Shown in pieces: positions 2,780 through 51,878 of a stretch of DNA of 64,000 nt. Below the pieces are notes generated by a model. The model did no database searches, was not told the DNA's origin, and worked only from the letters and a program-made list of their open reading frames with translations. The position numbers and the translations under genes are program-made. The stretch is from positions 62,001-126,000 of the forward strand of contig NZ_FNNJ01000003.1 of the NCBI RefSeq assembly GCF_900106565.1, read 5' to 3'. This DNA is from Lutibacter oricola (GTDB lineage: Bacteria > Bacteroidota > Bacteroidia > Flavobacteriales > Flavobacteriaceae). Every line of letters starts with the position of its first letter. Within the stretch, counting starts at the first letter, position 1.

Positions 2780-3607
2780 TTCTCTTTTATGTATTGAAGC
2801 TTTATCCAAAAAATTAGTAATAGTAATTTTTGGATTTGAATAAATATAAACTTCAGAGGTGTTTATGGTAGAAATATCAATAGTTTCTGAAGCATTTATA
2901 AAAGCGTCAGCATTATTTTCTGTGTTTACAATAGCATTTTTAATAGAGAATTCTTTTCCTATAAAATGTCCATTTCCAATAGCTTTTAATTCTAAATTTT
3001 CTGAATTACCTTTAAAAGAAATATCAGATTTTTCTGTTAATGAAATAAACGTGTTTTGAGAGTTTACATTACCTTTAATTGCACTGTTTTGAATTGTATT
3101 TACAAACAAATCATTTGTAAGAATTTCTAAATTTAAGTCGCTGTTTTTTTTAGCGTTTACAGTTACAATTTTAGCGTTCAATTTTAAACTAAAATCTGCA
3201 TTATCAAAAGCATTTACTGTTAAGGAGTCTATGTTTAAAACGTTGGTAGTTTTAATTTTAGCATTGTTGTATGCATTAATTTCAGTTAAATAATTATTAA
3301 CTTGAATAATTATTTTAAGCTCTTTTTTTCTAGTAATTTTAGTTGAAGTTTTTATGGTAAGAATACCATCATTAACTTCAGTAATAATTGCATTTAGAAG
3401 GTTAGAATCTGCTTTTACTTTTAAATCTTGATTTTCATTGTAAAGTAGTTCTACTTCAACATTGTCAATAACTTCAATTTTGTCAAATTCAGCTATTTCT
3501 CTTTCTTCTGTTGTAATTTCTCTATTACCTTTTAATTTGTCTTGTGAAAATGATGTTCCTATTACAAATATTGTAAAAAATAAAGCTATTAAGTATGAAT
3601 TTTTCAT
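2774..3607 (-). CDS. Secreted head-GIN-domain protein (DUF2807)
   Basis: A 277-residue exported protein. It has an N-terminal signal peptide (MKNSYLIALFFTIF... ending near GTSFSQ), then a domain of short repeating beta-strands with many Asn/Asp turns, typical of the putative auto-transporter adhesin head GIN domain. The role is unknown; in Bacteroidota such proteins are periplasmic or surface-attached. The ATG at 3607 is preferred over the in-frame start at 3646 because it begins a clean signal peptide. A Bacteroidota-like -7 box (TAAATTTG on the minus strand, 3622-3629) lies 15 bases upstream. The gene is divergent from the trp operon and convergent with the transporter. Confidence 0.85.
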   Translation of the reverse strand: MKNSYLIALFFTIFVIGTSFSQDKLKGNREITTEEREIAEFDKIEVIDNVEVELLYNENQDLKVKADSNLLNAIITEVNDGILTIKTSTKITRKKELKIIIQVNNYLTEINAYNNAKIKTTNVLNIDSLTVNAFDNADFSLKLNAKIVTVNAKKNSDLNLEILTNDLFVNTIQNSAIKGNVNSQNTFISLTEKSDISFKGNSENLELKAIGNGHFIGKEFSIKNAIVNTENNADAFINASETIDISTINTSEVYIYSNPKITITNFLDKASIHKREL

Positions 3608-3654
3608 AAATATGTTTTTATCAAATTTAATAAAATAATTTTTCAATGAATAAT

Positions 3655-3684
3655 TTGTACAATTAAAAATCTATGTTACATTTG
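3655..3684 (+). promoter_or_regulatory. trp operon promoter (Bacteroidota type)
   Basis: TTG at 3655-3657, a 19-base spacer, and TACATTTG at 3677-3684, an exact match to the flavobacterial -33/-7 consensus TTG-N17-23-TAnnTTTG. The start of transcription would be near 3689-3691, only a few bases before the leader-peptide ATG at 3695. Confidence 0.8.
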
Positions 3685-3694
3685 TACCTAAATA

Positions 3695-3748
3695 ATGAAA
3701 AACAATAATTTAAATACAACTTGGTGGTGGAACTCTCTTATACAATAA
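3695..3748 (+). CDS. trpL: trp operon leader peptide (17 aa, Trp-Trp-Trp)
   Basis: Short ORF encoding MKNNNLNTTWWWNSLIQ, with three consecutive TGG codons at 3722-3730. Its ATG lies about five bases after the predicted transcription start, and it is followed by a terminator hairpin before trpE. This is the arrangement of ribosome-mediated tryptophan attenuation and agrees with the Bacteroid-trp leader class known from Bacteroidota. When Trp-tRNA is scarce the ribosome stalls on the WWW codons; otherwise it runs to the stop codon and the terminator forms. The peptide itself is presumably degraded. Confidence 0.9.
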   Translation: MKNNNLNTTWWWNSLIQ

Positions 3749-3820
3749 GCGAGAAACCTGTTATATTTAAAAAAATAATATAAAACTTAAAAGGACTTAT
3801 CTCGTGATAAGTCCTTTTTT
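3749..3820 (+). promoter_or_regulatory. trp attenuator: antiterminator segment and terminator hairpin
   Basis: Terminator: AAAGGACTTATC (3790-3801), loop TCGT, GATAAGTCCTTT (3806-3817) and a T run to 3820. Alternative pairing: GCGAGA at 3749-3754, immediately after the trpL stop, can pair with TCTCGT at 3800-3805 (one G-U pair), which takes the top of the terminator stem and its loop. A competing upstream hairpin pairs TCTC-TTAT (within trpL, 3734-3741) with ATAA-GAGA (3745-3754, bulge GC). A ribosome stalled on the Trp codons would mask that hairpin and free the antiterminator. The mutually exclusive pairings are read directly; the mechanism is inferred. Confidence 0.85.
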
Positions 3821-3831
3821 TATACAACATA

Positions 3832-5223
3832 ATGGAAAAACTAAAATTTAAAACAATTTCTAAACATCAGCTTTCTGATACGGTAACTCCAGTTGGTTTG
3901 TACTCTAAAATTAGAGATAAGTATGCCAATAGTTTATTGTTAGAAGGTTCAGATTATCACAGTAAAGAAGAAAGTTTCACCTTTATTTGTGCCGATCCAA
4001 TAGTTACATTAAAAGCTGATAAAAACAAGTTTACGTATAGTTATAAAAATAAAGAATTGGATGCAAAAGAAATCAATAGAGATTTTTATTCAATTTTTGA
4101 AAATTATAAGCAAACAGTAGATGTAGATTGTAGTGACGAAATAAAATCGTTTAACGGTTTTTATGGATATATTTCTTACAATTCAATTCAGTATTTTGAG
4201 ACTATAAAATTAAAGGCTGAAAAAGCACCTTCTGAAATTCCAGATTTACAATTTAGTTTCTTCCGTTTTATTATAGTTATTAATCATTTTAATGATGAAT
4301 TAACGTTGATTGAAAACATTGAAGAAGGCGAGGAGTCAAGAATTGAAGAAATGCAAACTCTAATAAATGCTCGTACTTATGGTTTGTATAAGTTTGAAAT
4401 GGAAGGGCAAGAATCTTCAAATTGTACCGATGAATATTTCAAAAATAATGTTGCCAAAGCAAAAATGCATTGTAAACGTGGTGATGTTTTTCAGTTAGTT
4501 TTATCTCGCCAGTTTCAACAATCTTTTTCAGGTGATGATTTTAATGTGTATAGAGCATTACGTTCAATAAACCCTTCGCCATATTTATTTTATTTCGACT
4601 ACGGAAGTTTTAAATTAATGGGTTCTTCACCAGAAGCACAAATTAAAATTGATTCAGAGAAAGCAATCATCAATCCAATTGCTGGAACATTTAGAAGAAC
4701 TGGTGATATGGCAAAAGATATTTTGTTGGGTGAAAAACTTTCAAATGATCAAAAAGAAACCGCCGAACACGTAATGTTAGTGGATTTAGCGCGTAACGAT
4801 TTAAGTAAACACGCAAGCAATGTAAATGTTGAGGTGTTTAAAGAAGTACAATATTTTAGTCACGTAATTCATTTAGTTTCAACAGTTCAAGGGAAACCAA
4901 AAGGCGAAGCTATTAAAATTGTTGGTGATACTTTTCCCGCAGGAACTTTAAGTGGAGCGCCTAAATTTAAAGCAATGGAATTAATTGATACTTATGAGAA
5001 TCAAACACGTGGTTTTTATGGTGGAGCAGTTGGTTTTATTGGGTTAGATAATAGTGTAAATTTAGCAATTGCCATTCGTTCATTTGTAAGTAAAAGCAAT
5101 ACGTTGTATTACCAAGCAGGAGCAGGAATTGTAATGAAATCCTCAGAAGAAGGAGAACTACAAGAAGTAAATAACAAATTAGCTGCTTTGAAAAAAGCAT
5201 TAACATTGGCAGAGAAAATATAA
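3832..5223 (+). CDS. trpE: Anthranilate synthase component I
   Basis: A 463-residue chorismate-binding enzyme making anthranilate from chorismate with ammonia supplied by TrpG. Visible: the tryptophan feedback-site region LLLEGSDYHS near residue 35 (counterpart of the LLES motif), and the chorismate-binding core including GSSPE, NPIAGTFRR, the ETAEHVMLVDLARND helix, and SGAPKFKAMELI and GAGIV near the C-terminus. Normal length. It is the first structural gene of the operon, 11 bases after the attenuator, so it is expected to be controlled both by attenuation and by feedback inhibition. Confidence 0.97.
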   Translation: MEKLKFKTISKHQLSDTVTPVGLYSKIRDKYANSLLLEGSDYHSKEESFTFICADPIVTLKADKNKFTYSYKNKELDAKEINRDFYSIFENYKQTVDVDCSDEIKSFNGFYGYISYNSIQYFETIKLKAEKAPSEIPDLQFSFFRFIIVINHFNDELTLIENIEEGEESRIEEMQTLINARTYGLYKFEMEGQESSNCTDEYFKNNVAKAKMHCKRGDVFQLVLSRQFQQSFSGDDFNVYRALRSINPSPYLFYFDYGSFKLMGSSPEAQIKIDSEKAIINPIAGTFRRTGDMAKDILLGEKLSNDQKETAEHVMLVDLARNDLSKHASNVNVEVFKEVQYFSHVIHLVSTVQGKPKGEAIKIVGDTFPAGTLSGAPKFKAMELIDTYENQTRGFYGGAVGFIGLDNSVNLAIAIRSFVSKSNTLYYQAGAGIVMKSSEEGELQEVNNKLAALKKALTLAEKI

Positions 5224-32498: not shown

Positions 32499-32951
32499 AT
32501 GAAAAGATTATTGCTATTTGTTCTTGTTTGTAGCTTGGTTAGCTGTTCTGTAAGAGAAACACCTGAATTTGTTACTGTTAAAAATATAAAAGTATTAAAA
32601 TCTGATAAGAAAAATTTAACCTTAAAAGGAGATGCTTTATTCAAAAATCCAAATATTATAGGAGGAAAACTTCAAGCTGATGGAATTAAAGTTTTAGTTA
32701 ATGGAAATGAAGTAGCTGAGGTATCTTCGGAAGTTTTTAATGTTCCTTCTGAAAAAGAATTTACCATTCCATTATTAGTTGATATTCCAGTAAACAAGGT
32801 TTTTACCGATAAAAATTTAGGGAGTTTATTAGGAAGTATTCTTACCAAAAAAATGGAAGTAAAATATATTGGTAAGATTAACTATAAAATTTTAGGTTTT
32901 TCGCATTCTTATACTGTTGATGAAACTGAAACGGTGAAGATTAAACTGTAA
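32499..32951 (+). CDS. LEA14-like lipoprotein
   Basis: 150 residues. Signal peptide MKRLLLFVLVCSLVSC with lipid Cys16; the remainder (KNIKVLKSDKKNLTLKGDALFKNPN ... VLVNGNEVAEV ... FTIPLLVDIP) is a small beta-sandwich of the WHy/LEA14 type. Role unknown; such lipoproteins sit in the envelope. Single gene divergent from kdsA. Confidence 0.8.
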   Translation: MKRLLLFVLVCSLVSCSVRETPEFVTVKNIKVLKSDKKNLTLKGDALFKNPNIIGGKLQADGIKVLVNGNEVAEVSSEVFNVPSEKEFTIPLLVDIPVNKVFTDKNLGSLLGSILTKKMEVKYIGKINYKILGFSHSYTVDETETVKIKL

Positions 32952-33104: not shown

Positions 33105-36100
33105 CTAATCTTCAATTCTAACTCTAACACCTTCACTATGGCTACTAAATTCAGGAGCATACATACTTTGAATTGTTGTAATTCCGTTGCTAAAGTTTCC
33201 GGCATTATTTACACGTAAATCATACTCAAAAACGTACACGCCTTTTGGTAAACGTTCCATAAAAAAGTTGGTAGAAGCATCTTTTGTACTTTCGTAATAA
33301 CCTAAACCATCTTGCCATTTATAGCTCGATAATACATTTATAGGTTCTAAACCACTTGCTCTCATATCTTTCATATGCACAAATTCCATTGGTCTATCAG
33401 CTCTTAATTCAACTCTAACGGTAATTAAATCACCAACCTTTAAATTTGTATTTTCAGTAATTTCAGTTAATTCTTTACCGGTATTAGTATTTTGTTTTAA
33501 GAATAATTTCTTACTTAATTTTAAAGGAGTTTCAGCCGAAGTAATTTTGTCTAAATCTTCGAAATATTGCCAATATAAACCTCCCCAAGCAATTCCTTCA
33601 TCTTTTTTAGAAAGTGTAACTTCACCCATTTCAGAAGTAATTTCATTGCCATTCCACGAAGTTTTAAAATAACCAGTTCCAGCTTCAACTTTTACGTTTT
33701 CTAATTTAGAAGGTTCTATTTTTTGTGTTCCAATAGTAACGTCAACAGATTCATTTACAGAAAGCCAATCGCTTCCTTGTAATAATAAAGCATAAACAGC
33801 TTCTGTAGTTGCTTTGGTTGTTTTCCATTGGTTGGTTTGCTTGTTTTTTAACAACCAAATTTTTAAGTTATCAATGGTTTCTAGATTCTTCGTTTCACTC
33901 AGAATGACATTTCCAGCTTCAGCGAAAACTTCAATCATTAATGCTTGTGTTTCAATAGGCGATTGATACCAAAACCAACTAGGTGTATTTGCTTTCCAAT
34001 ACATTCCTAATTCTTCAGAAGTAATGCTATTCTCTTTTAATGATTTTAATATATCAGAAGTGATTGTTTTATTCTCATTTCTATGTTGAATTAAAGCAAT
34101 CATTCCTTTTGAATATAGATTAAAGTCTGTCCAGTAAGTAGCCGATTGTTTTGTATAATAATCCACCGCTTTTTGAACTTTTGAAGGAACTTCAACATTC
34201 TTATAAAAGCTACGCATATATAAATAATGTAATTGCGTATGCCCTAAATTATTTTTTTCTAAAAATTCTTTTTCAGCCTTTATTCCTTTTGATTTTGTTT
34301 TCGCTTTTTCTCTTGTTTTTTTAGCTCTTTCTAAAAGTTTGTTATAATCATCTAAAATTTCATCATCTAAAAATTGGACGGCTTTGGTAATCATTTTAGA
34401 TGCTTCACCATCTGTCATTTCGACTCCGCTCAATGACCTAAGTTGTTTTAAATGACCATAACTAGAAGCAATGTGTTGTGTAATATATCGGTTAGGATAT
34501 TTACTTCCTTTAAACCAAGGGAAACCACCATTGCTAAACTGTAATTCCTTTAGCTTGTTTAAAGCAATTTCTTGCTCGTTTTTCATTTTATTTAAATCGA
34601 ACAACAAACCAATTCTTTTCTTTTGCTCGGTTTCATTTTGAGCATCACGTAACCAAGGAGTTTCTTGAATAATTATGGATTTTAATTCTTCATTTTTCTC
34701 TAAATTAGAAACCAATGCATCACTCGTTTTCCAAAGATTAAATACTTCTTGAATTCTTGGATTTGAATTCGCAATATGGCTAGCCAAGGTATTTGCATAA
34801 TAACGCGAGAATGTTTGCTCAGCACATTCATACGGATATTCCATTAAGTATGGCAAACTTTGAACTGCATACCAAGCCGGATTGGAAGTTATTTCCAACG
34901 TTAACTTATGATTTTTTAATGTTCGGTCGCTGAGCGGAGTCGAAGCGCTATTTATAAGTTTATCTAACTTAAATGTTTTTGTCTGCTTACTACGTACCCA
35001 CATTGGTAATGTTTCAGTAACCAACATTCTGTTAGATAAAACTGGCAATACATTTTGTTCACCATCAGAAAATTCTCCAGCTTTTGCTACAATTTTATAC
35101 TGTACTGCTTGAACATTATCTGGAATAGTTAATGTCCACATTACATTGGTATTTCCTTTAGCATCAACCATAAAGTTTTGAAGCCCTCTCTGTCCTTTGG
35201 ACATCTCTCCCGAAGGGAGAGAAGCTTTTAGAAGTTGTTTTGTAACATCCTGACCAGTAATTGCATCTGTTAACACCAATTGAGCAACTCCATTTAAAGC
35301 TTTATCAGATAAATTAGAAATTTTACTAGAAAACTGTAAAACATCACCCTCACGTAAAAAACGTGGTGGATTTGGTAATACCATTAGGTCTTTTTGTGTA
35401 ACTGTTGTTAAGGTTTTAGTTGCAGTTTCTAGCTGTGGAGTATGTGCCAATAACTGCAATTTCCAACGTGTTAATGCTTCTGGCATTGTAAAGTTGAAAC
35501 TTACGCAACCATCTTTATCGGTTTTTAAATGAGGGAAAAAGAAAGCGGTTTCTTTAAAGTTTTTTCTTGCCTTTACATTTGCTAGATCTTTTTCTAACTT
35601 TTTTTGTCCACTTTTTGTGGAAATTATTATTACTCCATTTGCTCCACGAGAGCCATAAATTGAAGTAGCTGCAGCATCTTTTAAAACATTAATAGATAAA
35701 ATTTCAGCATTACCAATTTCAAATTTATTTACAGGCACGCCGTCAACAATATATAATGCATTTTTGGTATTTGTTGAATTTGTGCCTCTAATCATTACTT
35801 TTTTATTGGCTCCTGATGTTCCAGAGATGTTTACACCTGCAACTTTTCCCTCTAGAATCATTGATACATCTTCTGAAACTTCAGATTTTACTGTAGAGAT
35901 TGATCCAGTTAAACTTGCTTTTCTTTGTGTTCCATAACCAACAACAACAACTTCTTCTAATGCTTCATTTGATGCTTCCAAAGAAATATCCATTGTAGAT
36001 GAGGTTCCAATTGTTTTACCAGTTGTAGAAAATCCAATATAACTATATTGCAATTCATCTCCTTTTTTTACTTTTATTGAGTAGGCACCATCAAAATCTG

Positions 36101-39100
36101 TTTGAGTTCCAAAAGTTGTACCTGAAATAATAACCGAAACTCCAGGTAAAGGTTGCCCATCATTATCTGTTACAACACCTGAAACTATTTTATCATAAGA
36201 ACTTCTTTGTGATTCTTTTCGTTCAACACTAGCTTTAGCTTTTGCCATATAAGTTCGTTGTAAATAACGATTGTTATTCAAACTAAACCCAAACCAATTT
36301 AACTTATCAAAATTTTGCGTTTGATTGTTATAATAATGTCTTGATAAATTATAAACTCTAAAGCTAGTATTACCGTATGAATTCTGCGTATTCCAATTGT
36401 TATAGCTGTAATATGATGAATGTTGAATTGGATTAAAACTCCAACTATGAGATTTAAATTGATCTAAAGAAGCATCGTACATACTAGCCAAAACTTCTGC
36501 AGTGATTTTGTCTTTGTTTGCTCCTTTAATTTTAAAACTCCACGTTTCTTCTTGTCCTGGTTGTAGCTTATTTCTAAAGGTTTGTGTTTCAATAGAAATA
36601 TCGTTTAACTGTTTTGGTACAGCAATATTTAAAACGCCACTTTTAAAACTATTGTATGCTGAAAAACTGTACTTAATTGCAAAGCCGCCTAAATCTTCTT
36701 GTTCTACTGGAATTTTAATGAATTTTACTTCATTATTAAGTTTTACAATTTGCTGACTTACAATTTTATGATTTTTTTCAATGGCAATAGTTACAAAAAC
36801 TTCATTAGAAGCTGAACCAATTTTTAGCTGAACATTTTCATTGGTTTTGTACAAGTTCTTATCGGTTGAAATTTCAAATAACTGATTGTCTGCAACAGCA
36901 GGTTTTTTTGAATTGAAAACTGAAAATCGAGTTTTATCTTCAACTTTTTGATTGAATTTATCATTGGCTTCAACTTCAATTAAATATTTGCCAATGTTCC
37001 AATTTTTAATCTTTTTTAACTGTATTTCTTTACTTTCTTCAGTGTTAAATTCAGTTTCATAAACTAAAGCTCCTTTTTTCCAGTTATTAACCTTGTTTTC
37101 ATCGTTTGTGTAAGGTTCGTGTGGAAATAAATTTTGATATTCATTTTTAGATAAAACTTGATAATCAGGAACACTCCAAGGTCTTTCTCGCAATACATTT
37201 ACTGGTGCTAATAGTTTGTAAATTTTTAAAGCTCCTTTAGTTGGAACAAATTCTCCGTTTAAATTGTTGGTAGTTAATGTGATTTTATGAGTTTTTTCAT
37301 TCAAATCAATTTTATCCGAAATACTTGCTGAAATATCTAATGTATGATACCCAACTTTTACCAAAGTAGTTGCACTTCTAGTTTCTCCATTTATATCTGT
37401 AATATCTGCTTCAATTTCATAAGTGAAAACAGGTTTATTCTCCTTGTCAGCACTTTTATCTGGAATGGATTTAAACGTGATTTCAAAGTTTCCTTCATTA
37501 TCAGTTTTAGTTTCACCATGTGTAATTTCCATCGCTCCTGAAGTATTGTAAGACGGTCTGTACCAATAAAACCAACGTGGATAAATTACTTTTCTATGAA
37601 CTCTATACGTAACTTTAGCATCAGAAATTGAACTGCCAGCAAATGCGGTTGCGTTTCCTTTTACAGTAACTGAATCGTTTAATTTAAAAGTTTCGGTTAC
37701 AGGTTTAAACTCTGCTTCAAATTTTGGACGTTTGTATTCTTCTACGGAAATAGTATGTTCTAAATAGTCAAAATCATAATCAGCATTGTTGTAAAAGTTA
37801 GTGTTATCGTGTTCATAACTTTCATCTACATAAATTGTGTATTCACCGTTTAAACCATTATTTGGTAAAATGAAAGATTCTGAAACTGAACCAAACTCAT
37901 TTAATTTTAATTCAATTTCTTTGATTTCCTCTCCATTAGGGTTTTCCAAAATAAAACTAACGTATTCATTGGTGAAAACTTCAGATTTGTCTCCTTGTTT
38001 TTTTAAGAAAATAGCTTTAAAATGAACCGTTTGTCCAGGTCTATAAATACTTCTATCAGTAAAAATAAATGGTTTAATAGTTATTTCATCATCGTTATTT
38101 TTTTCAATGCGTGGTTTTCTATTTTCGTTTAAATAATAATCTTCAAAAGCTGCTTTTTCATTTTTAGTTTCTACTGTAATTGCTACATTTCTGTGATAAT
38201 TTCTAGTTTTAAAATTAAATTCACCAAACTCGTTTGTAACTAAATTTTTTGAGATAGATTTGTTATATCTGCTAATGTCGTAGTTTTTTACAGAGACCTT
38301 TGCATCAGTAAAAGGTTCTCCTGTATTTCTATCTATTACCTGATAAATATGTTGCTCATTTGTGCTTTTTTGAACAACAGAAATGTTTGTACTTTGAATA
38401 GTTGTAGTTGCAAAAGTTGAATTTTTATTGAGTACTTCTTGAGGTGAAGCAACCAATAAATAGTTTCCATTTTTTAAAGGAGGTAGTACAATTTCTGTAA
38501 TGTGCTGTTGGTAATCTTTTTCGTTTTTTAATGTGTTTTTTAATGCTTCAACTTTTTTGAGTTTATTTATATAAGCAATCTTTGTAGAATCATTATAAAT
38601 TTTATTAAAAGTTCTAATTTCTTTTTCCGAAACTTTATAAATGGTTGTATTTAATTTATTAAAGTTTTTGAAGAAAACTGATATTTTACTATGTAAATTA
38701 GTTGGAATATGTTTTTCCGTAATTATGCTTATTTCTTGTTGTAAAATGCTTTCTTTTAGGTTTTTACATTGTTTGGTCCCTAAACTTTCAGGGAATTTTT
38801 CTATTGCTAAATCACAGATTTCAACAGCTTTTGCCTTTTCAAACTGATGTTTTGTATTTTCAGAATTGTATTCGTTTCCTTTTTCGTTGTGAACACTCGC
38901 AATTTCAAAATCTATTAAAGTTGAAGCTTCGTGGCTTTTAAAATCTTCTTTTAACTCAATTAATTTGTTGAAAAACAGTTCATTTTCACCTTCAAAATTT
39001 GAATGTTGGTTTAAGAATTTCAATCGTTCTAACTCAACAGAAACAAAAGCATTTTTATTGTTATTTTTATTATGAAAAGCAATTAAGCTTTGATAAATGT

Positions 39101-39845
39101 TTAAGGCATTTAATTGCAATGATTGCTTGTCTTTTTCATTTAGATAACTTGTGTTTATCTTATAAAACTGTTCAAAATCTTTTGCTGAAATCACAAATTT
39201 ATCTGCTGGTTTTGTGATGGAGTTTTCAGAAGTTTTGTAAAAGTCTAATGCATTGTGAGCAATAAAATCGTATAAAGTTGGTCTATATAATTTTGAATCT
39301 TTTTGAAGATGTAAAATATCGTTAAACTGTTCTAATTTAGTTTGTTGTAGAATAATTCCGTTTTGTAATGAATTTTGAAAATGAGTGTGAATTTCAGTAA
39401 ACAATGTATTTAAATCCCAAGTTCTAAAATCAACAGTATCTATTTTTTCAGATGTTTTTGTTCTATTATAAAATTTCCATCTATTTTGTTGAAAATATTG
39501 CCAGTATAAATTTGCCAATACACTTTCCAATACATTTTTTGTTGGAGTTTCAGCCTTTTCAATTTCAGTTTTTAAATTAGATATAACACTTAATTTCGCA
39601 TCTTCTTCTAAAGTTAATGCAAATTTTGATTTATATAGTAATGCTTTTACTAGTTGAGGAGAGTTTTTCTGTTTTTCAGCTTTTTTATAAATGGTTTCAA
39701 CCACTTTTAAAGCAGATTTAGGCAGGTTTTTAACTTCATTTTGTTGAACTTCCTTCCATAAATTGGAATAGTTGTCAAATTTTTGGGCTTTTGATACGTG
39801 AGAGAATAAAAATACAGACATTAATGTTAAGGCAATTTTTTTCAT
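33105..39845 (-). CDS. Giant alpha-2-macroglobulin family protein with inserted carboxypeptidase-regulatory and TonB-plug domains
   Basis: 2246 residues, secreted (signal peptide MKKIALTLMSVFLFSHVSKAQ). N-terminal helical region to ~400; beta-rich macroglobulin domains, including an MG2-like FTDRSIYRPGQTVHFKAIF (~595); a bait-type domain (~1000-1150). Then, at ~1220-1300, a CarboxypepD_reg-like domain (GVVTDNDGQPLPGVSVIISG), and at ~1300-1410 a SusC-style plug (EEVVVVGYGTQRKASLTGS, LYIVDGVPV, INVLKDAAATSIYGSRGANG, VIIISTKSG). The macroglobulin core resumes (FNFTMPEALTRWKLQLLAHT) with the thioester motif ECAEQ at Cys1674. Likely traps proteases at the outer membrane; the plug insert is odd. 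Four fragments of interspersed repeats lie in frame (33881, 34415, 34925, 35184). Confidence 0.9.
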   Translation of the reverse strand: MKKIALTLMSVFLFSHVSKAQKFDNYSNLWKEVQQNEVKNLPKSALKVVETIYKKAEKQKNSPQLVKALLYKSKFALTLEEDAKLSVISNLKTEIEKAETPTKNVLESVLANLYWQYFQQNRWKFYNRTKTSEKIDTVDFRTWDLNTLFTEIHTHFQNSLQNGIILQQTKLEQFNDILHLQKDSKLYRPTLYDFIAHNALDFYKTSENSITKPADKFVISAKDFEQFYKINTSYLNEKDKQSLQLNALNIYQSLIAFHNKNNNKNAFVSVELERLKFLNQHSNFEGENELFFNKLIELKEDFKSHEASTLIDFEIASVHNEKGNEYNSENTKHQFEKAKAVEICDLAIEKFPESLGTKQCKNLKESILQQEISIITEKHIPTNLHSKISVFFKNFNKLNTTIYKVSEKEIRTFNKIYNDSTKIAYINKLKKVEALKNTLKNEKDYQQHITEIVLPPLKNGNYLLVASPQEVLNKNSTFATTTIQSTNISVVQKSTNEQHIYQVIDRNTGEPFTDAKVSVKNYDISRYNKSISKNLVTNEFGEFNFKTRNYHRNVAITVETKNEKAAFEDYYLNENRKPRIEKNNDDEITIKPFIFTDRSIYRPGQTVHFKAIFLKKQGDKSEVFTNEYVSFILENPNGEEIKEIELKLNEFGSVSESFILPNNGLNGEYTIYVDESYEHDNTNFYNNADYDFDYLEHTISVEEYKRPKFEAEFKPVTETFKLNDSVTVKGNATAFAGSSISDAKVTYRVHRKVIYPRWFYWYRPSYNTSGAMEITHGETKTDNEGNFEITFKSIPDKSADKENKPVFTYEIEADITDINGETRSATTLVKVGYHTLDISASISDKIDLNEKTHKITLTTNNLNGEFVPTKGALKIYKLLAPVNVLRERPWSVPDYQVLSKNEYQNLFPHEPYTNDENKVNNWKKGALVYETEFNTEESKEIQLKKIKNWNIGKYLIEVEANDKFNQKVEDKTRFSVFNSKKPAVADNQLFEISTDKNLYKTNENVQLKIGSASNEVFVTIAIEKNHKIVSQQIVKLNNEVKFIKIPVEQEDLGGFAIKYSFSAYNSFKSGVLNIAVPKQLNDISIETQTFRNKLQPGQEETWSFKIKGANKDKITAEVLASMYDASLDQFKSHSWSFNPIQHSSYYSYNNWNTQNSYGNTSFRVYNLSRHYYNNQTQNFDKLNWFGFSLNNNRYLQRTYMAKAKASVERKESQRSSYDKIVSGVVTDNDGQPLPGVSVIISGTTFGTQTDFDGAYSIKVKKGDELQYSYIGFSTTGKTIGTSSTMDISLEASNEALEEVVVVGYGTQRKASLTGSISTVKSEVSEDVSMILEGKVAGVNISGTSGANKKVMIRGTNSTNTKNALYIVDGVPVNKFEIGNAEILSINVLKDAAATSIYGSRGANGVIIISTKSGQKKLEKDLANVKARKNFKETAFFFPHLKTDKDGCVSFNFTMPEALTRWKLQLLAHTPQLETATKTLTTVTQKDLMVLPNPPRFLREGDVLQFSSKISNLSDKALNGVAQLVLTDAITGQDVTKQLLKASLPSGEMSKGQRGLQNFMVDAKGNTNVMWTLTIPDNVQAVQYKIVAKAGEFSDGEQNVLPVLSNRMLVTETLPMWVRSKQTKTFKLDKLINSASTPLSDRTLKNHKLTLEITSNPAWYAVQSLPYLMEYPYECAEQTFSRYYANTLASHIANSNPRIQEVFNLWKTSDALVSNLEKNEELKSIIIQETPWLRDAQNETEQKKRIGLLFDLNKMKNEQEIALNKLKELQFSNGGFPWFKGSKYPNRYITQHIASSYGHLKQLRSLSGVEMTDGEASKMITKAVQFLDDEILDDYNKLLERAKKTREKAKTKSKGIKAEKEFLEKNNLGHTQLHYLYMRSFYKNVEVPSKVQKAVDYYTKQSATYWTDFNLYSKGMIALIQHRNENKTITSDILKSLKENSITSEELGMYWKANTPSWFWYQSPIETQALMIEVFAEAGNVILSETKNLETIDNLKIWLLKNKQTNQWKTTKATTEAVYALLLQGSDWLSVNESVDVTIGTQKIEPSKLENVKVEAGTGYFKTSWNGNEITSEMGEVTLSKKDEGIAWGGLYWQYFEDLDKITSAETPLKLSKKLFLKQNTNTGKELTEITENTNLKVGDLITVRVELRADRPMEFVHMKDMRASGLEPINVLSSYKWQDGLGYYESTKDASTNFFMERLPKGVYVFEYDLRVNNAGNFSNGITTIQSMYAPEFSSHSEGVRVRIED
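33881..33911. repeat. Repeat fragment in the macroglobulin gene (reads VILSETKNLE)
   Basis: CTAGATTCTTCGTTTCACTC-AGAATGACATT on the plus strand: a half copy of the GTCATTCTGA family, in frame. Confidence 0.8.
34415..34439. repeat. Repeat fragment in the macroglobulin gene (reads RSLSGVEM)
   Basis: TCATTTCGACTCCGCTCAAT-GACC: a half copy of the GAGCGGAGTCGAA family, the same peptide that occurs in TrpF (RSLSGVEV). Confidence 0.85.
34925..34949. repeat. Repeat fragment in the macroglobulin gene (reads APLSDRT-like)
   Basis: GGTCGCTGAGCGGAGTCGAA-GCGCT: another half copy of the GAGCGGAGTCGAA family in the opposite orientation. Confidence 0.85.
35184..35225. repeat. Repeat element in the macroglobulin gene (CTCTCCCGAAGGGAGAG palindrome)
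   Basis: Contains the palindrome CTCTCCCGAAGGGAGAG preceded by CCTCTCTGTCCTTTGGACAT. A third, distinct repeat type in the same gene, in frame (reads LPSGEMSKGQRG). Confidence 0.8.
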
Positions 39846-46756: not shown

Positions 46757-47452
46757 TTATTCGTATTTTAATGTAATTTCAATAGCACCATTTCCACCTC
46801 TCATTCCCCAATGTCCAGCTTTATTTCCTGTTAAAACTTTAATAGTTTTTATATTTGCAGGTATAACTGATGAAATATCTTGAACTACCATTCCATCTAT
46901 AACTAAAAGGGCATCAGGTTTTGCAAATATAGATTTGGGACCTCTCGAAGCTAATTCAATTATGGTTCGTCCATCATCGGGGCTTTCATAAATATTTACG
47001 CCTGGGTAAATAAGTTCAATAACTTCATAAACAGATTGGTATATGTCGTAATTGTTATTGTCTTCAATTAAATTTTCTAAGCAATAATTTAATTGTTCTT
47101 TGGTCATGTAGTCATATTTTATGACATCTTTATAGGAGTTTTTACCTTCAATATATATTAAATTGGCATTAATAGAATCTATTCCTTTAGCCTTAAATGA
47201 ATAATTGTTAAAACCATAAGCTTTAACTTTTATTGCATCTTTTTTAGAACATTTGATTGAAAAATTACCTAAAGAATCTGTAACTGTCCGATTCTTAGTT
47301 TTTTTTGTTTCAACAGTAACGTTTTTTAGTGGGTAAATTTTAAAGGCTAGAACCTTTCCTTTTATTACCTTATCTTGGGCATTAGATGTTACTTGAAATA
47401 AAATTAAGAAGGTAAAAAAAAGCGCAATTTTTAGAATCTTTTTTAGGTACAT
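46757..47452 (-). CDS. Orphan carboxypeptidase-regulatory plus TonB-plug protein
   Basis: 231 residues with signal peptide (MYLKKILKIALFFTFL...TSNAQ). Residues ~27-85 form a CarboxypepD_reg-like domain (VIKGKVLAFKIYPLKNVTVE, DSLGNFSI); ~140-231 resemble the plug of a TonB receptor (GRTIIELASRGP, ALLVIDGMVV, IKTIKVLTGNKAGHWGMRGG). No barrel follows, and the protein ends in KYE. It may interact with a transport complex, or be a regulatory or surface protein. Adjacent to and divergent from the HTCS. Confidence 0.75.
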   Translation of the reverse strand: MYLKKILKIALFFTFLILFQVTSNAQDKVIKGKVLAFKIYPLKNVTVETKKTKNRTVTDSLGNFSIKCSKKDAIKVKAYGFNNYSFKAKGIDSINANLIYIEGKNSYKDVIKYDYMTKEQLNYCLENLIEDNNNYDIYQSVYEVIELIYPGVNIYESPDDGRTIIELASRGPKSIFAKPDALLVIDGMVVQDISSVIPANIKTIKVLTGNKAGHWGMRGGNGAIEITLKYE

Positions 47453-47612: not shown

Positions 47613-50600
47613 ATGCATAAAATGTTAAAGCTTAAAATTGTAGTCCTTTTCTTGTTTTTTGCAAGCCATTGTTTTTCTCAAAACTCGGTGAGGTTTGATC
47701 ATTTATTAACTGAAGATGGTTTGTCGCAAAATGATGTAAATACAATTTATCAAGATAAAAAAGGGTTTATGTGGTTTGGAACTCACGATGGATTGAATAA
47801 ATATAACGGTTATGAGTTTGAAATTTTTAAACCAGACCCTAACAATCCAAACAGTATAAGCAGTAATTTGATTTATACAATTGTTGGTGACAAAGATGAT
47901 AATTTATGGATAGGAACTACTGGTGATGGTTTAAATTTTTACAATCAATCTACCAATAAGTTTACACATTACAAACACGATAGTAATAACCCTCATAGTA
48001 TTTCTCACGATCAAATAAATTCTATATATAGAGACAGGAGTAACAGATTGTGGATTTCTACTTTAGAAGGTATTGATATGTTGGATTTAAACAATTTAAC
48101 GTCTCCAGTAAAATTTCATCATGTAAAAATATCAGAAGATTATCCATATAAAAATGGGAAAAAATTAAATGTATCTACATTTTATGAAGATACGAATGGG
48201 CAGTTATGGATGGGTGAGATTAATGGTACTGGAAAAATGATAAAGAGTAAAGAAGGTGATTTTATTTATGAAAGTGCCAATCCTTATTTTAAGCTAACAC
48301 CTGTAGTGGCCGTTAGAAGTATTTGTGAAGATTCTCATGGACGGTTAATTTTAGGAACTACTGGTGGTTTGTTTTTAATTAAACAAAATAACGGAATTGT
48401 AACTAGACACTTAATTAGCACAGGAGTTTTTAATAAGTTAGTTTCATATAAAAATCAAATTTGGGCAGGGAGTATTAAAGGTTTGTCTAGTTTTCAAACC
48501 TTAGGGGAGAAAGAAAATTTATTAATGAAAAATAAATTTACCTACGACCCTAATAACTCTAAATATAGTTTAGCAAAAAGTAGTGTAAAATCTTTATTTG
48601 TAGATAGAACAGGTATAATTTGGGTTGGTTCAAATGGAGGTGGTGTAAATATTTTAGATCCAAATAGAAAGCAATTTAAATATTTTGGAAAAACCGTTGC
48701 ACCAACAAGTTTAAGTTCAAGTAATATTAAACTTATTTTTGAAGATAGTAACGGAGCAATGTGGTTTGGAACTGAAGAAGGAGGTTTAAATGTTGTGTCT
48801 AAAAAGGACAATGATGGAACCTATACTAATTTTAAAAAGTTATTAGGCGAAAAATCACCAATTTGTGTGGTTGAAATTGAAACAAACAATAAAAAAGAAT
48901 TGTTATTTGGTACGGCCAATTGGTCCGGATTATTTAGGGTAGACATTACAAATCCAAACCTAACCAATACTATTGTAGCAGAAAATATAAATGAAATAGG
49001 TAGAAGTGTTTTTTCAATTTTAAAGGATAGTTCAAAAAATTTATGGTTTGGAACATATAATGGAGGTTTATATAGGTGGCTTAAAAGTGGTGATAATCAA
49101 TATAAAAAAGACATTTTATTTGATAAACCAAATGATACTTCAAGTTTGCCAAGTAGTATTATAAGAGATATTATTCAAGATAAAAAAGGTGATATATGGT
49201 TTGCTACTAGTGAAGGTTTAGCTTTTTTAACTAAAGAAGAATCTTTAAAAAAGAATCCGAAATTTGTTGTATACCAAAACATACCAGGAGATAAAACAAG
49301 TTTAAGCCATAACTATATTTTAAATATTTTTGAAAGTTCTACTGGTGATATATGGATAGGTACTTTTGGAGGAGGTTTAAATAAATTTGTACCATCTAAT
49401 AATTCAAAAGGGCATTTCAAAGTTTATTCTATAAAGCAAGGACTACCAAACGATGTAATTAAGTCTATAATTGAAGATGATCAAGGAGCTCTTTGGTTAT
49501 CTACAAATGGAGGTTTGTCAAAGTTTACCATAGAAAATGAAAAATTTAAAAATTACGATATTAATGACGGTTTACAAAGCAATGAGTTTGGTGAAAAGGT
49601 TAGTTTTAAAAGAGATAACGGAGAGTTATACTTTGGAGGAGTAAATGGGTTTAATATTTTTACAGCAGATAATATAAAAGATAATACAGATAAGCCAGAA
49701 ACTGTTTTTACTAATTTATTAATATTTAATGAGCAAGTTGAAATTGGAGAGAAAATAAATGGTCGGGTAATTTTAGAAAAATCAATAAATGAGATTGATG
49801 AAGTTAAATTAAAATACCAAGAAAATAGTTTTTCTTTTGAATTTGCGGGATTGCATTTTGCGGCTCCAAGTAAAAACCATTACGCATATAAGTTAGAGGG
49901 ATTTAATAAAGATTGGATTTATACAACATCAGATAAAAGGTTTGCTACTTATACAAACTTAGAACCGGGTTCTTATACACTAAAAGTTAAATCATCTAAT
50001 AATGATGGATTATGGAATGAAGAACCAGCAGAATTAAAAATAGAAATTATTCCTCCATTTTGGAGAACAAATTGGGCAAATGCGCTGTATTTATTAATGT
50101 TTTTAGGAAGTTTAATGTTGTTTAGAAGATTTACTATAATTAAATCAACTAAAAAACATCAATTAGAATTAGAACATATAGAAAAAGAAAAGCACGAAGA
50201 AATTCATAGATTGAAGTTAGAATTTTTTACAAACATATCTCATGAATTTAGAACCCCTCTAACCCTTATTAAAGGACCTTTAGAATACCTTCAAAATTTA
50301 GATATAAAACTACCAGAAGTTGTTGTTGAACAGCATAAGTTAATGCATAAAAATACCGATTATTTATTGCGTTTAGTAAATCAGTTGCTCGATTTTAGAA
50401 AAATGGATAAAGGTAAAATGGATTTAAAAGTTGGTGAAGGTGATATTGTTGACTTTGTTAGAGTAGTTGGAGAACCATTTCAATTTTTAAGCCATAAAAA
50501 GGATGTGAAATTTGAAATAAATTCTGACAAAGAAGTTATTAATTCTTGGTTTGATCAAGATGCAGTTGAGAAAATATTAAATAACTTATTATCTAATGCC

Positions 50601-51878
50601 TTTAAATTTGCACCAAAACTAGGAGAAGTAACAATTAACGTTAATGATGGAGTTAATTTTAAAATTCCAAAGGGAATTAAAGAACTACCAAATAAAGAAG
50701 ATTATTTTATTATTCAGGTAAAAGATTCTGGGCCTGGGATACCAAAACATAGGCTTAATTTTATTTTTGAACGGTTTTATGTGGATCGCGATGTAAGAAA
50801 AATTAATTCTGAAGGATCTGGAATTGGTTTAGCATTTACTAAAAAGTTAGTAGAACTTCATAAGGGAAGTATTGATGTTGTTACTGAAGAAAATAAAGGA
50901 ACAATGTTTGTGGTATGGTTGCCAAAAAATAAAGAAGCTTATGAAAATGTTTCTGGAATAAGTTTTGTACATGAAAATGAAAGTAAAACCTTTATTAATC
51001 AAGTTAATGCAGAGTCTCATGCAATTAGTGTATTAGATGAAATAGTAGATCAAAATTTTTCAAAAAAGAAATCTAAACTACCTATTGTTTTAGTTGTAGA
51101 TGACAATGCAGATATTAGAGCTTTATTAAAAAGAGGCTTGGAAGGCATTTACGAAATTTATGAAGCAGAAAATGGAGAGCGAGCTTTTGAGTTTGCAAAA
51201 AAATTGTTGCCAAATATTATTTTAACAGATGTATTAATGCCAATTATGGATGGTATTGTATTATGTGATTTGTTAAAAACAACTCAAGAAACTAGTCATA
51301 TACCTGTAATAATGTTAACAGCTAAAATTTCACAAGAAAGTGAAATGGAAGGCTTAAAAAATGGGGCAGACGCCTACATACGTAAACCATTCGATTTAGA
51401 AATGGTTAAACTAAAAATGCAAAACTTATTAAAGCATAGAGAGGAATTACGTAAAAAGTTTAATCGAGAAATTACCCTACAACCTAATGAAGTTACTGTA
51501 ACTTCTACAGATGAAATATTTTTACAAAAAGCCATCGAAATTGTAGAAGAAAATATGATGAATGATGAATTTAGTGTAGAAATTTTAGTAAAAGGTATGA
51601 GTTTAAGTAGAAGTACTTTTTACTTAAAAATTAAAGAACTTACAGGCTTGTCTTCTGGAGAGTTTATAAGAAATATTAGGCTTAAAAGAGCTATGCAATT
51701 ATTAGATAAAAGTAATTTATCAGTAAAAGAGATAATGTATATGACTGGGTTTAATACAGCATCTTATTTTTCTAAATGTTTTAAAAAGCAATTTGGTGTT
51801 ATACCAAGTAAATATGTTAGAGAAATGAAAGATAAAAATAACGGAGGTGAAATTCCAAACAATGATTTAAAAGAATAA
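47613..51878 (+). CDS. Hybrid two-component system sensor/regulator (HTCS)
   Basis: 1421 residues combining sensor and regulator. Signal sequence; a periplasmic sensor of ~14 propeller repeats (repeated I-x-x-D-x-x-G-x-x-W-x-G/S units, ~25-745); a Y_Y_Y domain (to ~810); a TM helix near 825; HisKA with phospho-His877 in SHEFRTPLT; HATPase (GPGIPKHRLNFIFERF, GSGIGLAFTKKLV); a receiver domain with phospho-Asp1206 in ILTDVLMP; and an AraC HTH (LSRSTFYLKIKELTG, FNTASYFSKCFKKQFGV). Such proteins bind oligosaccharides in the periplasm and activate the adjacent polysaccharide locus. Faces the locus tail-to-tail. Confidence 0.97.
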   Translation: MHKMLKLKIVVLFLFFASHCFSQNSVRFDHLLTEDGLSQNDVNTIYQDKKGFMWFGTHDGLNKYNGYEFEIFKPDPNNPNSISSNLIYTIVGDKDDNLWIGTTGDGLNFYNQSTNKFTHYKHDSNNPHSISHDQINSIYRDRSNRLWISTLEGIDMLDLNNLTSPVKFHHVKISEDYPYKNGKKLNVSTFYEDTNGQLWMGEINGTGKMIKSKEGDFIYESANPYFKLTPVVAVRSICEDSHGRLILGTTGGLFLIKQNNGIVTRHLISTGVFNKLVSYKNQIWAGSIKGLSSFQTLGEKENLLMKNKFTYDPNNSKYSLAKSSVKSLFVDRTGIIWVGSNGGGVNILDPNRKQFKYFGKTVAPTSLSSSNIKLIFEDSNGAMWFGTEEGGLNVVSKKDNDGTYTNFKKLLGEKSPICVVEIETNNKKELLFGTANWSGLFRVDITNPNLTNTIVAENINEIGRSVFSILKDSSKNLWFGTYNGGLYRWLKSGDNQYKKDILFDKPNDTSSLPSSIIRDIIQDKKGDIWFATSEGLAFLTKEESLKKNPKFVVYQNIPGDKTSLSHNYILNIFESSTGDIWIGTFGGGLNKFVPSNNSKGHFKVYSIKQGLPNDVIKSIIEDDQGALWLSTNGGLSKFTIENEKFKNYDINDGLQSNEFGEKVSFKRDNGELYFGGVNGFNIFTADNIKDNTDKPETVFTNLLIFNEQVEIGEKINGRVILEKSINEIDEVKLKYQENSFSFEFAGLHFAAPSKNHYAYKLEGFNKDWIYTTSDKRFATYTNLEPGSYTLKVKSSNNDGLWNEEPAELKIEIIPPFWRTNWANALYLLMFLGSLMLFRRFTIIKSTKKHQLELEHIEKEKHEEIHRLKLEFFTNISHEFRTPLTLIKGPLEYLQNLDIKLPEVVVEQHKLMHKNTDYLLRLVNQLLDFRKMDKGKMDLKVGEGDIVDFVRVVGEPFQFLSHKKDVKFEINSDKEVINSWFDQDAVEKILNNLLSNAFKFAPKLGEVTINVNDGVNFKIPKGIKELPNKEDYFIIQVKDSGPGIPKHRLNFIFERFYVDRDVRKINSEGSGIGLAFTKKLVELHKGSIDVVTEENKGTMFVVWLPKNKEAYENVSGISFVHENESKTFINQVNAESHAISVLDEIVDQNFSKKKSKLPIVLVVDDNADIRALLKRGLEGIYEIYEAENGERAFEFAKKLLPNIILTDVLMPIMDGIVLCDLLKTTQETSHIPVIMLTAKISQESEMEGLKNGADAYIRKPFDLEMVKLKMQNLLKHREELRKKFNREITLQPNEVTVTSTDEIFLQKAIEIVEENMMNDEFSVEILVKGMSLSRSTFYLKIKELTGLSSGEFIRNIRLKRAMQLLDKSNLSVKEIMYMTGFNTASYFSKCFKKQFGVIPSKYVREMKDKNNGGEIPNNDLKE

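What the first reader, a model, noticed from the sequence alone, without database searches (positions are those of the whole stretch)
33105..39845. Alpha-2-macroglobulin carrying a SusC-type TonB-plug module
Residues ~1220-1410 are a complete CarboxypepD_reg plus plug pair as in SusC-family receptors, placed between the bait-type domain and the thioester-bearing half of a macroglobulin (ECAEQ present). A plug without barrel inside a protease trap could tether or dock it to an outer-membrane channel or TonB system, or present a bait. Similar fusions may exist in flavobacteria, but no function is known to me.
Basis: partly seen in the sequence, partly recalled or inferred. Interest (0 to 1): 0.75.

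Follow-up and report, generated by a model that had tools for sequence, protein, structure and literature searches.

The report
Protease trap baited with receptor fragments
A bacterial protein that looks like a trap for protein-cutting enzymes carries, exactly where such traps hold their bait, a piece like the end of the cell's own nutrient receptors, and some distant relatives show similar likenesses built in other ways, which suggests that the trap may guard those receptors.

Summary
ORF 33105-39845(-) encodes a 2246-aa, intact, thioester-bearing bacterial alpha-2-macroglobulin (A2M) with a SusC-type N-terminal extension (NTE), Ton box and plug at about 1217-1414. It is no assembly error: homologues share the order. 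One correction: the module lies in the bait region itself, directly before the conserved R-x-x-F segment that triggers the trap, where E. coli A2M has its bait and complement C3 its anaphylatoxin domain. In models the NTE is folded, the Ton-box stretch is disordered and only the second half of the plug folds. Conservation is largely SusC-like and dN/dS is 0.12-0.29 in the three closest pairs, so it is not debris. Flavobacterial orthologues with short baits often carry small TonB-receptor pieces (Ton box in 48 of 73); where two motifs co-occur the order is nearly always the reverse of SusC. A minority of distant baits (14 of 65) also resemble receptor ends, six of them a non-SusC type. Best reading, at moderate confidence: bait mimicry, a trap for proteases that cut the periplasmic ends of TonB-dependent receptors. 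TonB docking is the main rival. No protease, cleavage or binding has been shown. I found no paper on this.

The parts
33105..39845 (-). A2M-family ORF, 2246 aa, intact
39786..39845 (-). likely Sec signal peptide (residues 1-20); no cysteine for a lipobox
   Evidence: read by eye from the translation; no signal-peptide program was run
37818..38069 (-). MG2 domain (residues 593-676)
   Evidence: Pfam PF01835; PDB A2M matches
36465..36875 (-). A2M_BRD, bait-region domain, N-terminal part (residues 991-1127)
   Evidence: Pfam PF07703
36198..36464 (-). start of the bait region: aromatic/Asn-rich linker (residues 1128-1216)
   Evidence: sequence; low pLDDT in much of it
35970..36197 (-). NTE domain (CarboxypepD_reg-like, residues 1217-1292), folded
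35931..35960 (-). Ton box L-E-E-V-V-V-V-G-Y-G (residues 1296-1305), disordered in the models
   Evidence: Ton box DEVVVTG defined in Bt1763 (PMC7782687)
35757..35930 (-). first part of the plug (residues 1306-1363), with plug helix LEGKVAGV and strand VMIRG; mostly disordered in the models; its first part (1307-1345) is under relaxed constraint
35604..35756 (-). second half of the plug, YIVDGV...ANGVIIISTKSG (residues 1364-1414), predicted small alpha/beta fold
   Evidence: Pfam PF07715; TIGR04057; pLDDT blocks 79-87
35538..35567 (-). alpha'NT-like segment RKNFKETAFF (residues 1427-1436), the switch segment that directly follows the bait
   Evidence: R1427, N1429, E1432, T1433 invariant in A3; R and F of the alpha'NT described in PMC9352918
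35289..35549 (-). A2M domain PF00207 (residues 1433-1519)
34815..34826 (-). thioester motif CAEQ (residues 1674-1677)
   Evidence: C, E, Q invariant in A3
33150..33521 (-). bMG10, C-terminal macroglobulin domain (residues 2109-2232)
   Evidence: Pfam PF17973

Best explanation
It is, most likely, a periplasmic protease trap of the bacterial alpha-2-macroglobulin family whose bait region has been rebuilt from the periplasmic N-terminus of a SusC-type TonB-dependent receptor (TBDT): NTE, Ton box, plug. Proposed mechanism: a protease that clips the exposed Ton-box linker or ejected plug of receptors cuts this bait instead; the R1427-x-x-F1430 segment then slips out of its channel, the thioester domain swings free, and CAEQ bonds the protease inside the trap. 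Shown by computation: the architecture, the bait position, predicted disorder of the Ton-box stretch, purifying selection, and TBDT likeness of a part of the baits in several bacterial families. Inferred: location, cleavage, the identity of the protease, trapping, and that guarding receptors is the benefit.
For: Position: the module lies between A2M_BRD (ends 1127) and PF00207 (starts 1433); in E. coli A2M the 20 bait residues 923-942 that lack density in the cleaved form (PMC4498604 passages) lie between the same two domains (905 and 976). It is followed closely by R-x-x-F, like the conserved R and F of the alpha'NT next to the bait (PMC9352918 passages). [quoted passage not shown] The disordered, hence probably cleavable, stretch is the Ton-box linker. 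Other baits look like TBDT N-termini: 14 of 65 class-wide baits beat at least 99 of 100 shuffles; 37 of 65 baits from named genomes, the nearest relatives, do, against 3 of 65 for TBDT barrels. Short baits only: 20 of 44, 9 of 61 and 32 of 73, against 0 in each set for window genes as control. Six baits of families f24, f25 and f58 match best a receptor, L130, that does not match the SusC model. In short baits with two motifs the order is the reverse of SusC: IRG strand before Ton box 23 of 23, 9 of 9 and 1 of 1; helix first 6 of 7, 5 of 5 and 1 of 1; full modules Ton box first 12 of 12 and 11 of 11. So these are not just eroded copies. dN/dS of the module is 0.12, 0.27 and 0.29 in the three least diverged non-identical pairs. 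Ejected SusC plugs are described as open to proteolysis in vitro (PMC7782687 passages).
Against: No cleavage, binding or localisation data exist. I know of no protease that attacks TBDT N-termini in these bacteria (no exhaustive search). Class-wide, 51 of 65 baits show no significant TBDT likeness, and among those 51 the barrel panel scores higher at least as often as the N-terminal one (27 against 22); over all 65 it is 36 against 27 in favour of N-termini. The Ton-box motif is not clearly enriched in the 61 short class-wide baits (5, shuffled mean 1.4, maximum 6). Of the 14 significant baits, L059 and L080 rest on gapped alignments that do not convince by eye. The NTE is a compact fold, not an obvious cleavage site. 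Strict conservation of L1296 and E1298 fits TonB binding at least as well. In human A2M, lengthening the bait predisposes to collapse (section heading in PMC9352918). Related sequences inflate the counts.
Confidence: 0.45

Rival explanations
1. TonB-docked trap: the Ton box in the bait binds the periplasmic domain of TonB, so that the A2M, which has no lipid anchor, is held at or worked by the TonB-ExbBD machine, perhaps near receptors through which foreign proteins enter.
For: Ton box is the best conserved part of the module: L1296 and E1298 38 of 38 in modules chosen for length, mean identity 0.70, against 0.26 in the first part of the plug (SusC 0.75 and 0.40). Ton box kept in 34 of 35 and 13 of 18 NTE-length baits, while the plug signature is kept in 24 and 6, and in 48 of 73 short flavobacterial baits against a shuffled mean of 2.0. 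Disordered in the model and so probably accessible. PMC7782687 suggests that the NTE may give TonB specificity.
Against: Does not explain why the motif sits in the bait and not at an end, nor the plug pieces (IRG strand 29 of 73, plug helix 8 of 73), nor baits with plug pieces but no Ton box (L083, L093; L165). Not clearly enriched in short class-wide baits (5 of 61).
Confidence: 0.25
2. Tolerated filler: the bait only has to be flexible and not cut by the cell's own proteases. TBDT linkers already meet this in the periplasm and were captured and kept without any special target.
For: Module presence changes at least 15 times on a tree of the C-terminal half (110 rows with a state: 35 long, 75 short). 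Human A2M works with a Gly-Ser bait (PMC8267569, abstract and section 4). Full modules form one side of a branch against 24 SusCs (support 91, unstarred), so one old capture is possible. Most class-wide baits (51 of 65) lack detectable TBDT likeness.
Against: SusC-like conservation of NTE, Ton box and second half of the plug, dN/dS 0.12-0.29 in the closest pairs, reversed motif order in short baits, a non-SusC receptor type in other families, and in family scans of 65 baits matches below E 0.001 only to SusC, Plug, CarboxypepD_reg and the similar CooC_C and BamP models.
Confidence: 0.24
3. Barrel docking or a misnamed receptor: the plug inserts into a receptor barrel, or the ORF is a frame-joined or misassembled TBDT.
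For: Nearly complete Pfam Plug match; some sources name such proteins SusC/RagA receptors.
Against: Barrel part of the SusC model not matched; unbroken genes with the same order in other genomes; plug absent from many modules; first half of the plug disordered.
Confidence: 0.04

Closest known systems
Bacterial alpha-2-macroglobulins (E. coli YfhM/ECAM, Salmonella A2M)
   Different: About 305 residues instead of 70 between the two Pfam domains; no lipobox seen; not beside pbpC. The genome also has a separate ECAM-type A2M beside a PBP1C gene (TIGR02073), with a short bait that shows no Ton box by eye (L164:5050-10629).
SusC/RagA TonB-dependent receptors (TIGR04056)
   Different: No barrel; first half of the plug degenerate and disordered in models; module sits inside another protein.
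Complement C3/C4/C5
   Different: The inserted domain is of another kind (from general knowledge); furin processing of the anaphylatoxin domain (PMC9352918) has no known counterpart here; bacterial.
Engineered A2M with swapped baits (PMC8267569)
   Same: Shows that bait sequence sets protease selectivity (abstract and section 4).
   Different: Artificial, human; here a natural bait resembles the cell's own receptor.

Membership tests
alpha-2-macroglobulin family | macroglobulin domains with MG2, BRD, PF00207 and C-terminal bMG10 | tested here: met
   all four over the Pfam cut-offs
alpha-2-macroglobulin family | CxEQ thioester motif | tested here: met
   CAEQ 1674-1677; C, E, Q invariant in 25 sequences
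alpha-2-macroglobulin family | bait region followed by the R-x-x-F alpha'NT | tested here: met
   R1427-K-N-F1430
alpha-2-macroglobulin family | bait cleavage, conformational change, covalent trapping | not testable with these tools
   needs protein
ECAM subtype | neighbour of pbpC (frequent, not strictly defining; PMC4498604) | tested here: not met
   flanking genes are a Mur ligase on one side and, past a 150-aa ORF without a hit, a DAHP synthase on the other; the A2M beside PBP1C is another gene, L164
ECAM subtype | anchored to the inner membrane (lipoprotein) | tested here: not met
   no cysteine near the signal-peptide end, by eye
SusC/RagA TonB-dependent receptor | NTE, Ton box and plug | tested here: met
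SusC/RagA TonB-dependent receptor | beta-barrel after the plug | tested here: not met
   TIGR04056 matches only positions 3-218 of 981, 236 bits against a cut-off of 368
SusC/RagA TonB-dependent receptor | Ton box binds TonB | not testable with these tools
   only single chains can be predicted

The most novel reading that the evidence does not exclude
Bacteroidota use molecular mimicry of their own TonB-dependent receptors as bait: a second, non-lipoprotein A2M lineage carries in its bait a captured receptor N-terminus, or short receptor pieces reassembled in a new order, so that proteases which would cut the cell's main nutrient channels are drawn into a covalent trap. The bait is renewed from different receptor types in different families, and perhaps exchanged as a cassette between species.
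Probability: 0.38. Interest if true: 0.82.

Novelty: new variant of a known kind. Interest (0 to 1): 0.66.

Why it matters
What bacterial A2Ms are for is not settled, and bait sequence is usually taken as having no essential motifs. Here the bait carries readable information: it points to the periplasmic ends of TonB-dependent receptors as what is being guarded, or to TonB as a partner. That makes the purpose of this A2M lineage directly testable, and adds a possible natural case of a bait that encodes specificity, as has been done by engineering in human A2M.

Tried and rejected
Misassembly or frame-join: rejected. Recent gene conversion from a SusC of the same genome: not supported; the own-genome SusC matches listed are 43-56% identical (capped list), against 77% for the nearest A2M homologue over 1200-1560.

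Simple erosion of one insert as the source of short baits: does not explain the reversed motif order. Independence is limited, since many of these sequences come from one genus.

Family scans of 65 baits: CarbopepD_reg_2, CarboxypepD_reg and TIGR04056 in 4 members each, CooC_C and BamP in 3 each, Plug in 2; the other listed families were in one or two members with E values above 0.001, apart from TIGR04057 in 1 at 3.2e-16. Short pieces are below HMM sensitivity, so I used local alignment against shuffles and three kinds of control panel: TBDT barrels, reversed N-termini, window genes. In the class sample the N-termini beat the reversed ones in 36 and lost in 22 of 65; in the flavobacterial short baits 63 and 7 of 73, and against barrels 70 and 3 of 73.

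Repeat runs differ with seed and trim: class sample 14 of 65 and 12 of 65; flavobacterial short baits 36 of 73 and 32 of 73; named short baits 18 of 44 and 20 of 44.

A first run of the window-gene control gave 15 of 65 and 3 of 65 hits, in baits that carry whole or partial modules. For the bait checked (L167) the best match was a window gene that itself carries NTE and plug (46757-47452), so it was dropped and the test repeated on short baits only, giving 0 of 44, 0 of 61 and 0 of 73. Long baits were not retested against the cleaned panel.

Panel limits: 40 TBDT loci were fetched, 38 used (two with too short an ORF), from five genomes, four of them chosen after I had seen bait likeness there; at least one entry (L124) is not a receptor frame, which weakens rather than helps the test.

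First module tree with 48 A2M and 8 TBDT rows: two changes, P0091 beside a SusC, one clade not rejected, p-AU 0.343. With 38 and 24 rows: one side of a branch, support 91, not starred.

More diverged pairs listed give module dN/dS of 0.25-0.59 with dS near saturation.

The A3 profile search of the PDB did not list the bacterial A2Ms at E 0.001, so the bait position was fixed by Pfam domains and a MAFFT alignment; in that alignment residues around the bait are placed loosely. The half plug was not tested for fold by itself; the VIA list was filled by the NTE.

Rows dropped: class survey, 70 loci taken, 65 baits parsed, the places in G089 and G096 not taken; set, 120 rows, 117 with the C-terminal motif, 110 with a parsed bait; named genomes, 80 loci, 65 parsed. 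20 SusC loci were fetched for the second tree, 17 used.

Papers looked at and not used as support: PMC6793856 (two passages) and PMC6434023 (abstract and outline; the TBDT Oar is needed to export protease PopC in Myxococcus).

Full report
What is there. The window belongs to a genome of 4.12 Mb (G000, 57 contigs, 99.6% complete). The genus is most likely Lutibacter (Flavobacteriaceae): the nearest named homologue is from Lutibacter sp. TH_r2, and a same-genus genome has a contig as long as a named Lutibacter contig (G022:C1 768056, and L. citreus NZ_QEIH01000001.1 768056); this is an inference. ORF 33105-39845(-) codes for 2246 aa without interruption. Pfam finds MG2, A2M_BRD, CarbopepD_reg_2, Plug, A2M and bMG10 in this order; the thioester motif CAEQ is at 1674-1677. 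The N-terminus reads as a Sec signal peptide without a lipobox (by eye), so the protein is probably soluble in the periplasm. Neighbours with a Pfam match (DAHP synthase, Mur ligase, ribonucleotide reductase, a cytochrome-oxidase-like protein, Trk potassium transport and others) suggest no partner.

The module is SusC's N-terminus without the barrel. Positions 3-218 of 981 of the SusC family model match residues 1221-1429 at E 9.4e-70, and the SusC signature model passes its cut-off. The best matches in the PDB are SusC receptors. Own-genome SusC receptors listed are 43-56% identical to it, whereas the nearest A2M homologue is 77% identical over residues 1200-1560.

Distribution. Of 149 Bacteroidia genomes drawn evenly (own included), 70 hold a match to the C-terminal half at E 1e-20 or better. 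In a list of the 120 nearest proteins by the C-terminal half (capped), 110 baits could be parsed: 35 at least 210 residues long (NTE-length), 2 intermediate, 73 short. On a tree of the C-terminal half the long or short state changes at least 15 times. Full modules from Flavobacteriaceae and from proteins named Chryseolinea and Ohtaekwangia (38 rows chosen for length) lie on one side of a branch against 24 SusC N-termini (support 91, unstarred); an earlier tree with 8 receptors put one module, P0091, beside a SusC and did not reject one clade, p-AU 0.343. One old capture with repeated trimming is the simplest reading of the full modules.

Short baits are not plain. Among the 73 short baits, a Ton-box motif occurs in 48 (shuffled mean 2.0, maximum 7), the plug strand motif x-R-x-R-G in 29 (0.2), the plug helix motif L-x-G-K-V-x-G in 8 (0.0); the two motifs tried from the second half of the plug occur in none. 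Where two motifs co-occur their order is reversed relative to SusC: strand before Ton box in 23 of 23, and in 9 of 9 short baits of named genomes and 1 of 1 of the class sample; helix before Ton box in 6 of 7, 5 of 5 and 1 of 1. In full modules the Ton box comes first in 12 of 12 and 11 of 11. The two flavobacterial sets share 9 identical baits, and many rows are from one genus, so events are fewer than rows; but L079, from another family (f62), shows the same helix-strand-then-Ton-box build. In the 61 short class-wide baits the counts are low: Ton box 5 (shuffled mean 1.4, maximum 6, so not clearly enriched), strand 3 (0.1), helix 1 (0.0).

Likeness to receptors across the class. Best local alignment of each bait against 38 TBDT N-termini was compared with 100 shuffles of the bait. 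Class sample: 14 of 65 beat at least 99 shuffles (11 beat all 100), in eight families (f1, f24, f25, f43, f49, f53, f58, f62; families, scores); four of the 14 are long baits with an NTE-like part, and two, L059 and L080, are gapped and unconvincing. Over all 65, N-termini outscore barrel segments in 36 and lose in 27; among the other 51 they win in 22 and lose in 27, so there is no general signal beyond the 14. Named genomes, which are the nearest relatives: 37 of 65, against 3 of 65 for TBDT barrel segments; short baits alone 18 of 44 against 1 of 44. With window genes as control, after dropping one that itself carries NTE and plug, short baits gave 20 of 44, 9 of 61 and 32 of 73 for receptor N-termini and 0 of 44, 0 of 61 and 0 of 73 for the control. 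For six baits of families f24, f25 and f58 the best match is L130, with motifs such as RGARxExTYxYxDGxxV and GGVPAxxGDxSGG; L130 has CarboxypepD_reg and Plug domains and weak matches to other TonB-dependent receptor models, but no match to the SusC model at E 0.001. Many of the baits without likeness are rich in Gly, Ser, Lys and Glu (seen by eye). So the trait is recurrent, not general.

Selection. In the three least diverged non-identical pairs the module has dN/dS 0.27 (L006/L008), 0.12 (L174/L176) and 0.29 (L007/L008), against 0.06-0.09 for the first 600 codons after it and 0.14-0.17 for the stretch before it: it is under purifying selection, weaker than the trap's core. In the Tenacibaculum pair L174/L176 the module's dS is 0.21 while its flanks have 0.64 and 0.78, which suggests exchange of the bait as a cassette (one pair only). 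Across 38 full modules, mean column identity is close to that of 24 SusCs for the NTE (0.48 and 0.47), Ton box (0.70 and 0.75) and end of the plug (0.55 and 0.56), but falls in the first part of the plug (0.26 and 0.40).

Mechanism. [quoted passage not shown] SusC plugs were missing from closed states in vitro and open to proteolysis in crystals, and the Ton box becomes disordered in the ligand-bound form (PMC7782687, passages). A bait that copies this segment would be cut by whatever cuts receptors there. I therefore favour a guard with a receptor-like bait (0.45), then TonB docking (0.25), then tolerated filler (0.24). The decoy reading alone covers position, plug pieces, reversed order and the second receptor type; TonB docking best covers the strict Ton box and the retained NTE. 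The two can be true together.

Compared with what is known. By features it is a member of the A2M family and not a TonB-dependent receptor, for want of a barrel. It differs from the pbpC-linked ECAM type, which the same genome encodes separately as a 1859-aa protein with a lipobox-like start and a CVEQ thioester beside a PBP1C gene (L164). Databases already name such proteins either A2M or SusC/RagA receptor, so the fusion is visible in annotation. I found no paper that discusses it: searches returned none, one listing on insect endosymbionts, and the 20 of 1,271 papers listed held at most two of the three terms; all in an open-licence library only.

Noticed in passing
window 46757-47452 (-): A 231-aa gene with a signal-peptide-like start, a CarboxypepD_reg NTE and a plug-like half (TIGR04056 E 1e-18, Plug E 7e-06), no barrel and no clear Ton box: a free-standing barrel-less receptor N-terminus in the same window.
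   Followed up: partly
L164:5050-10629 (-) and 2061-4400 (-): Second A2M of the same genome, ECAM type, lipobox-like start, CVEQ thioester, beside a PBP1C gene (TIGR02073); short bait without a Ton box by eye.
   Followed up: yes
L174 and L176 (Tenacibaculum), bait module: Synonymous divergence of the bait module (0.21) is far below its flanks (0.64 and 0.78), as if the bait had been swapped as a cassette.
   Followed up: partly
L093, L083, L082, L043 baits: Baits that resemble the plug of a receptor (L130) that does not match the SusC model: an apparently separate origin of receptor likeness.
   Followed up: partly
window 32499-32951 (+): 150-aa ORF next to the A2M gene without a Pfam or NCBIfam hit.
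   Followed up: no
window 47613-51878 (+): Hybrid two-component regulator (propeller, Y_Y_Y, HisKA, receiver, AraC), a kind known to control polysaccharide use (recalled).
   Followed up: no
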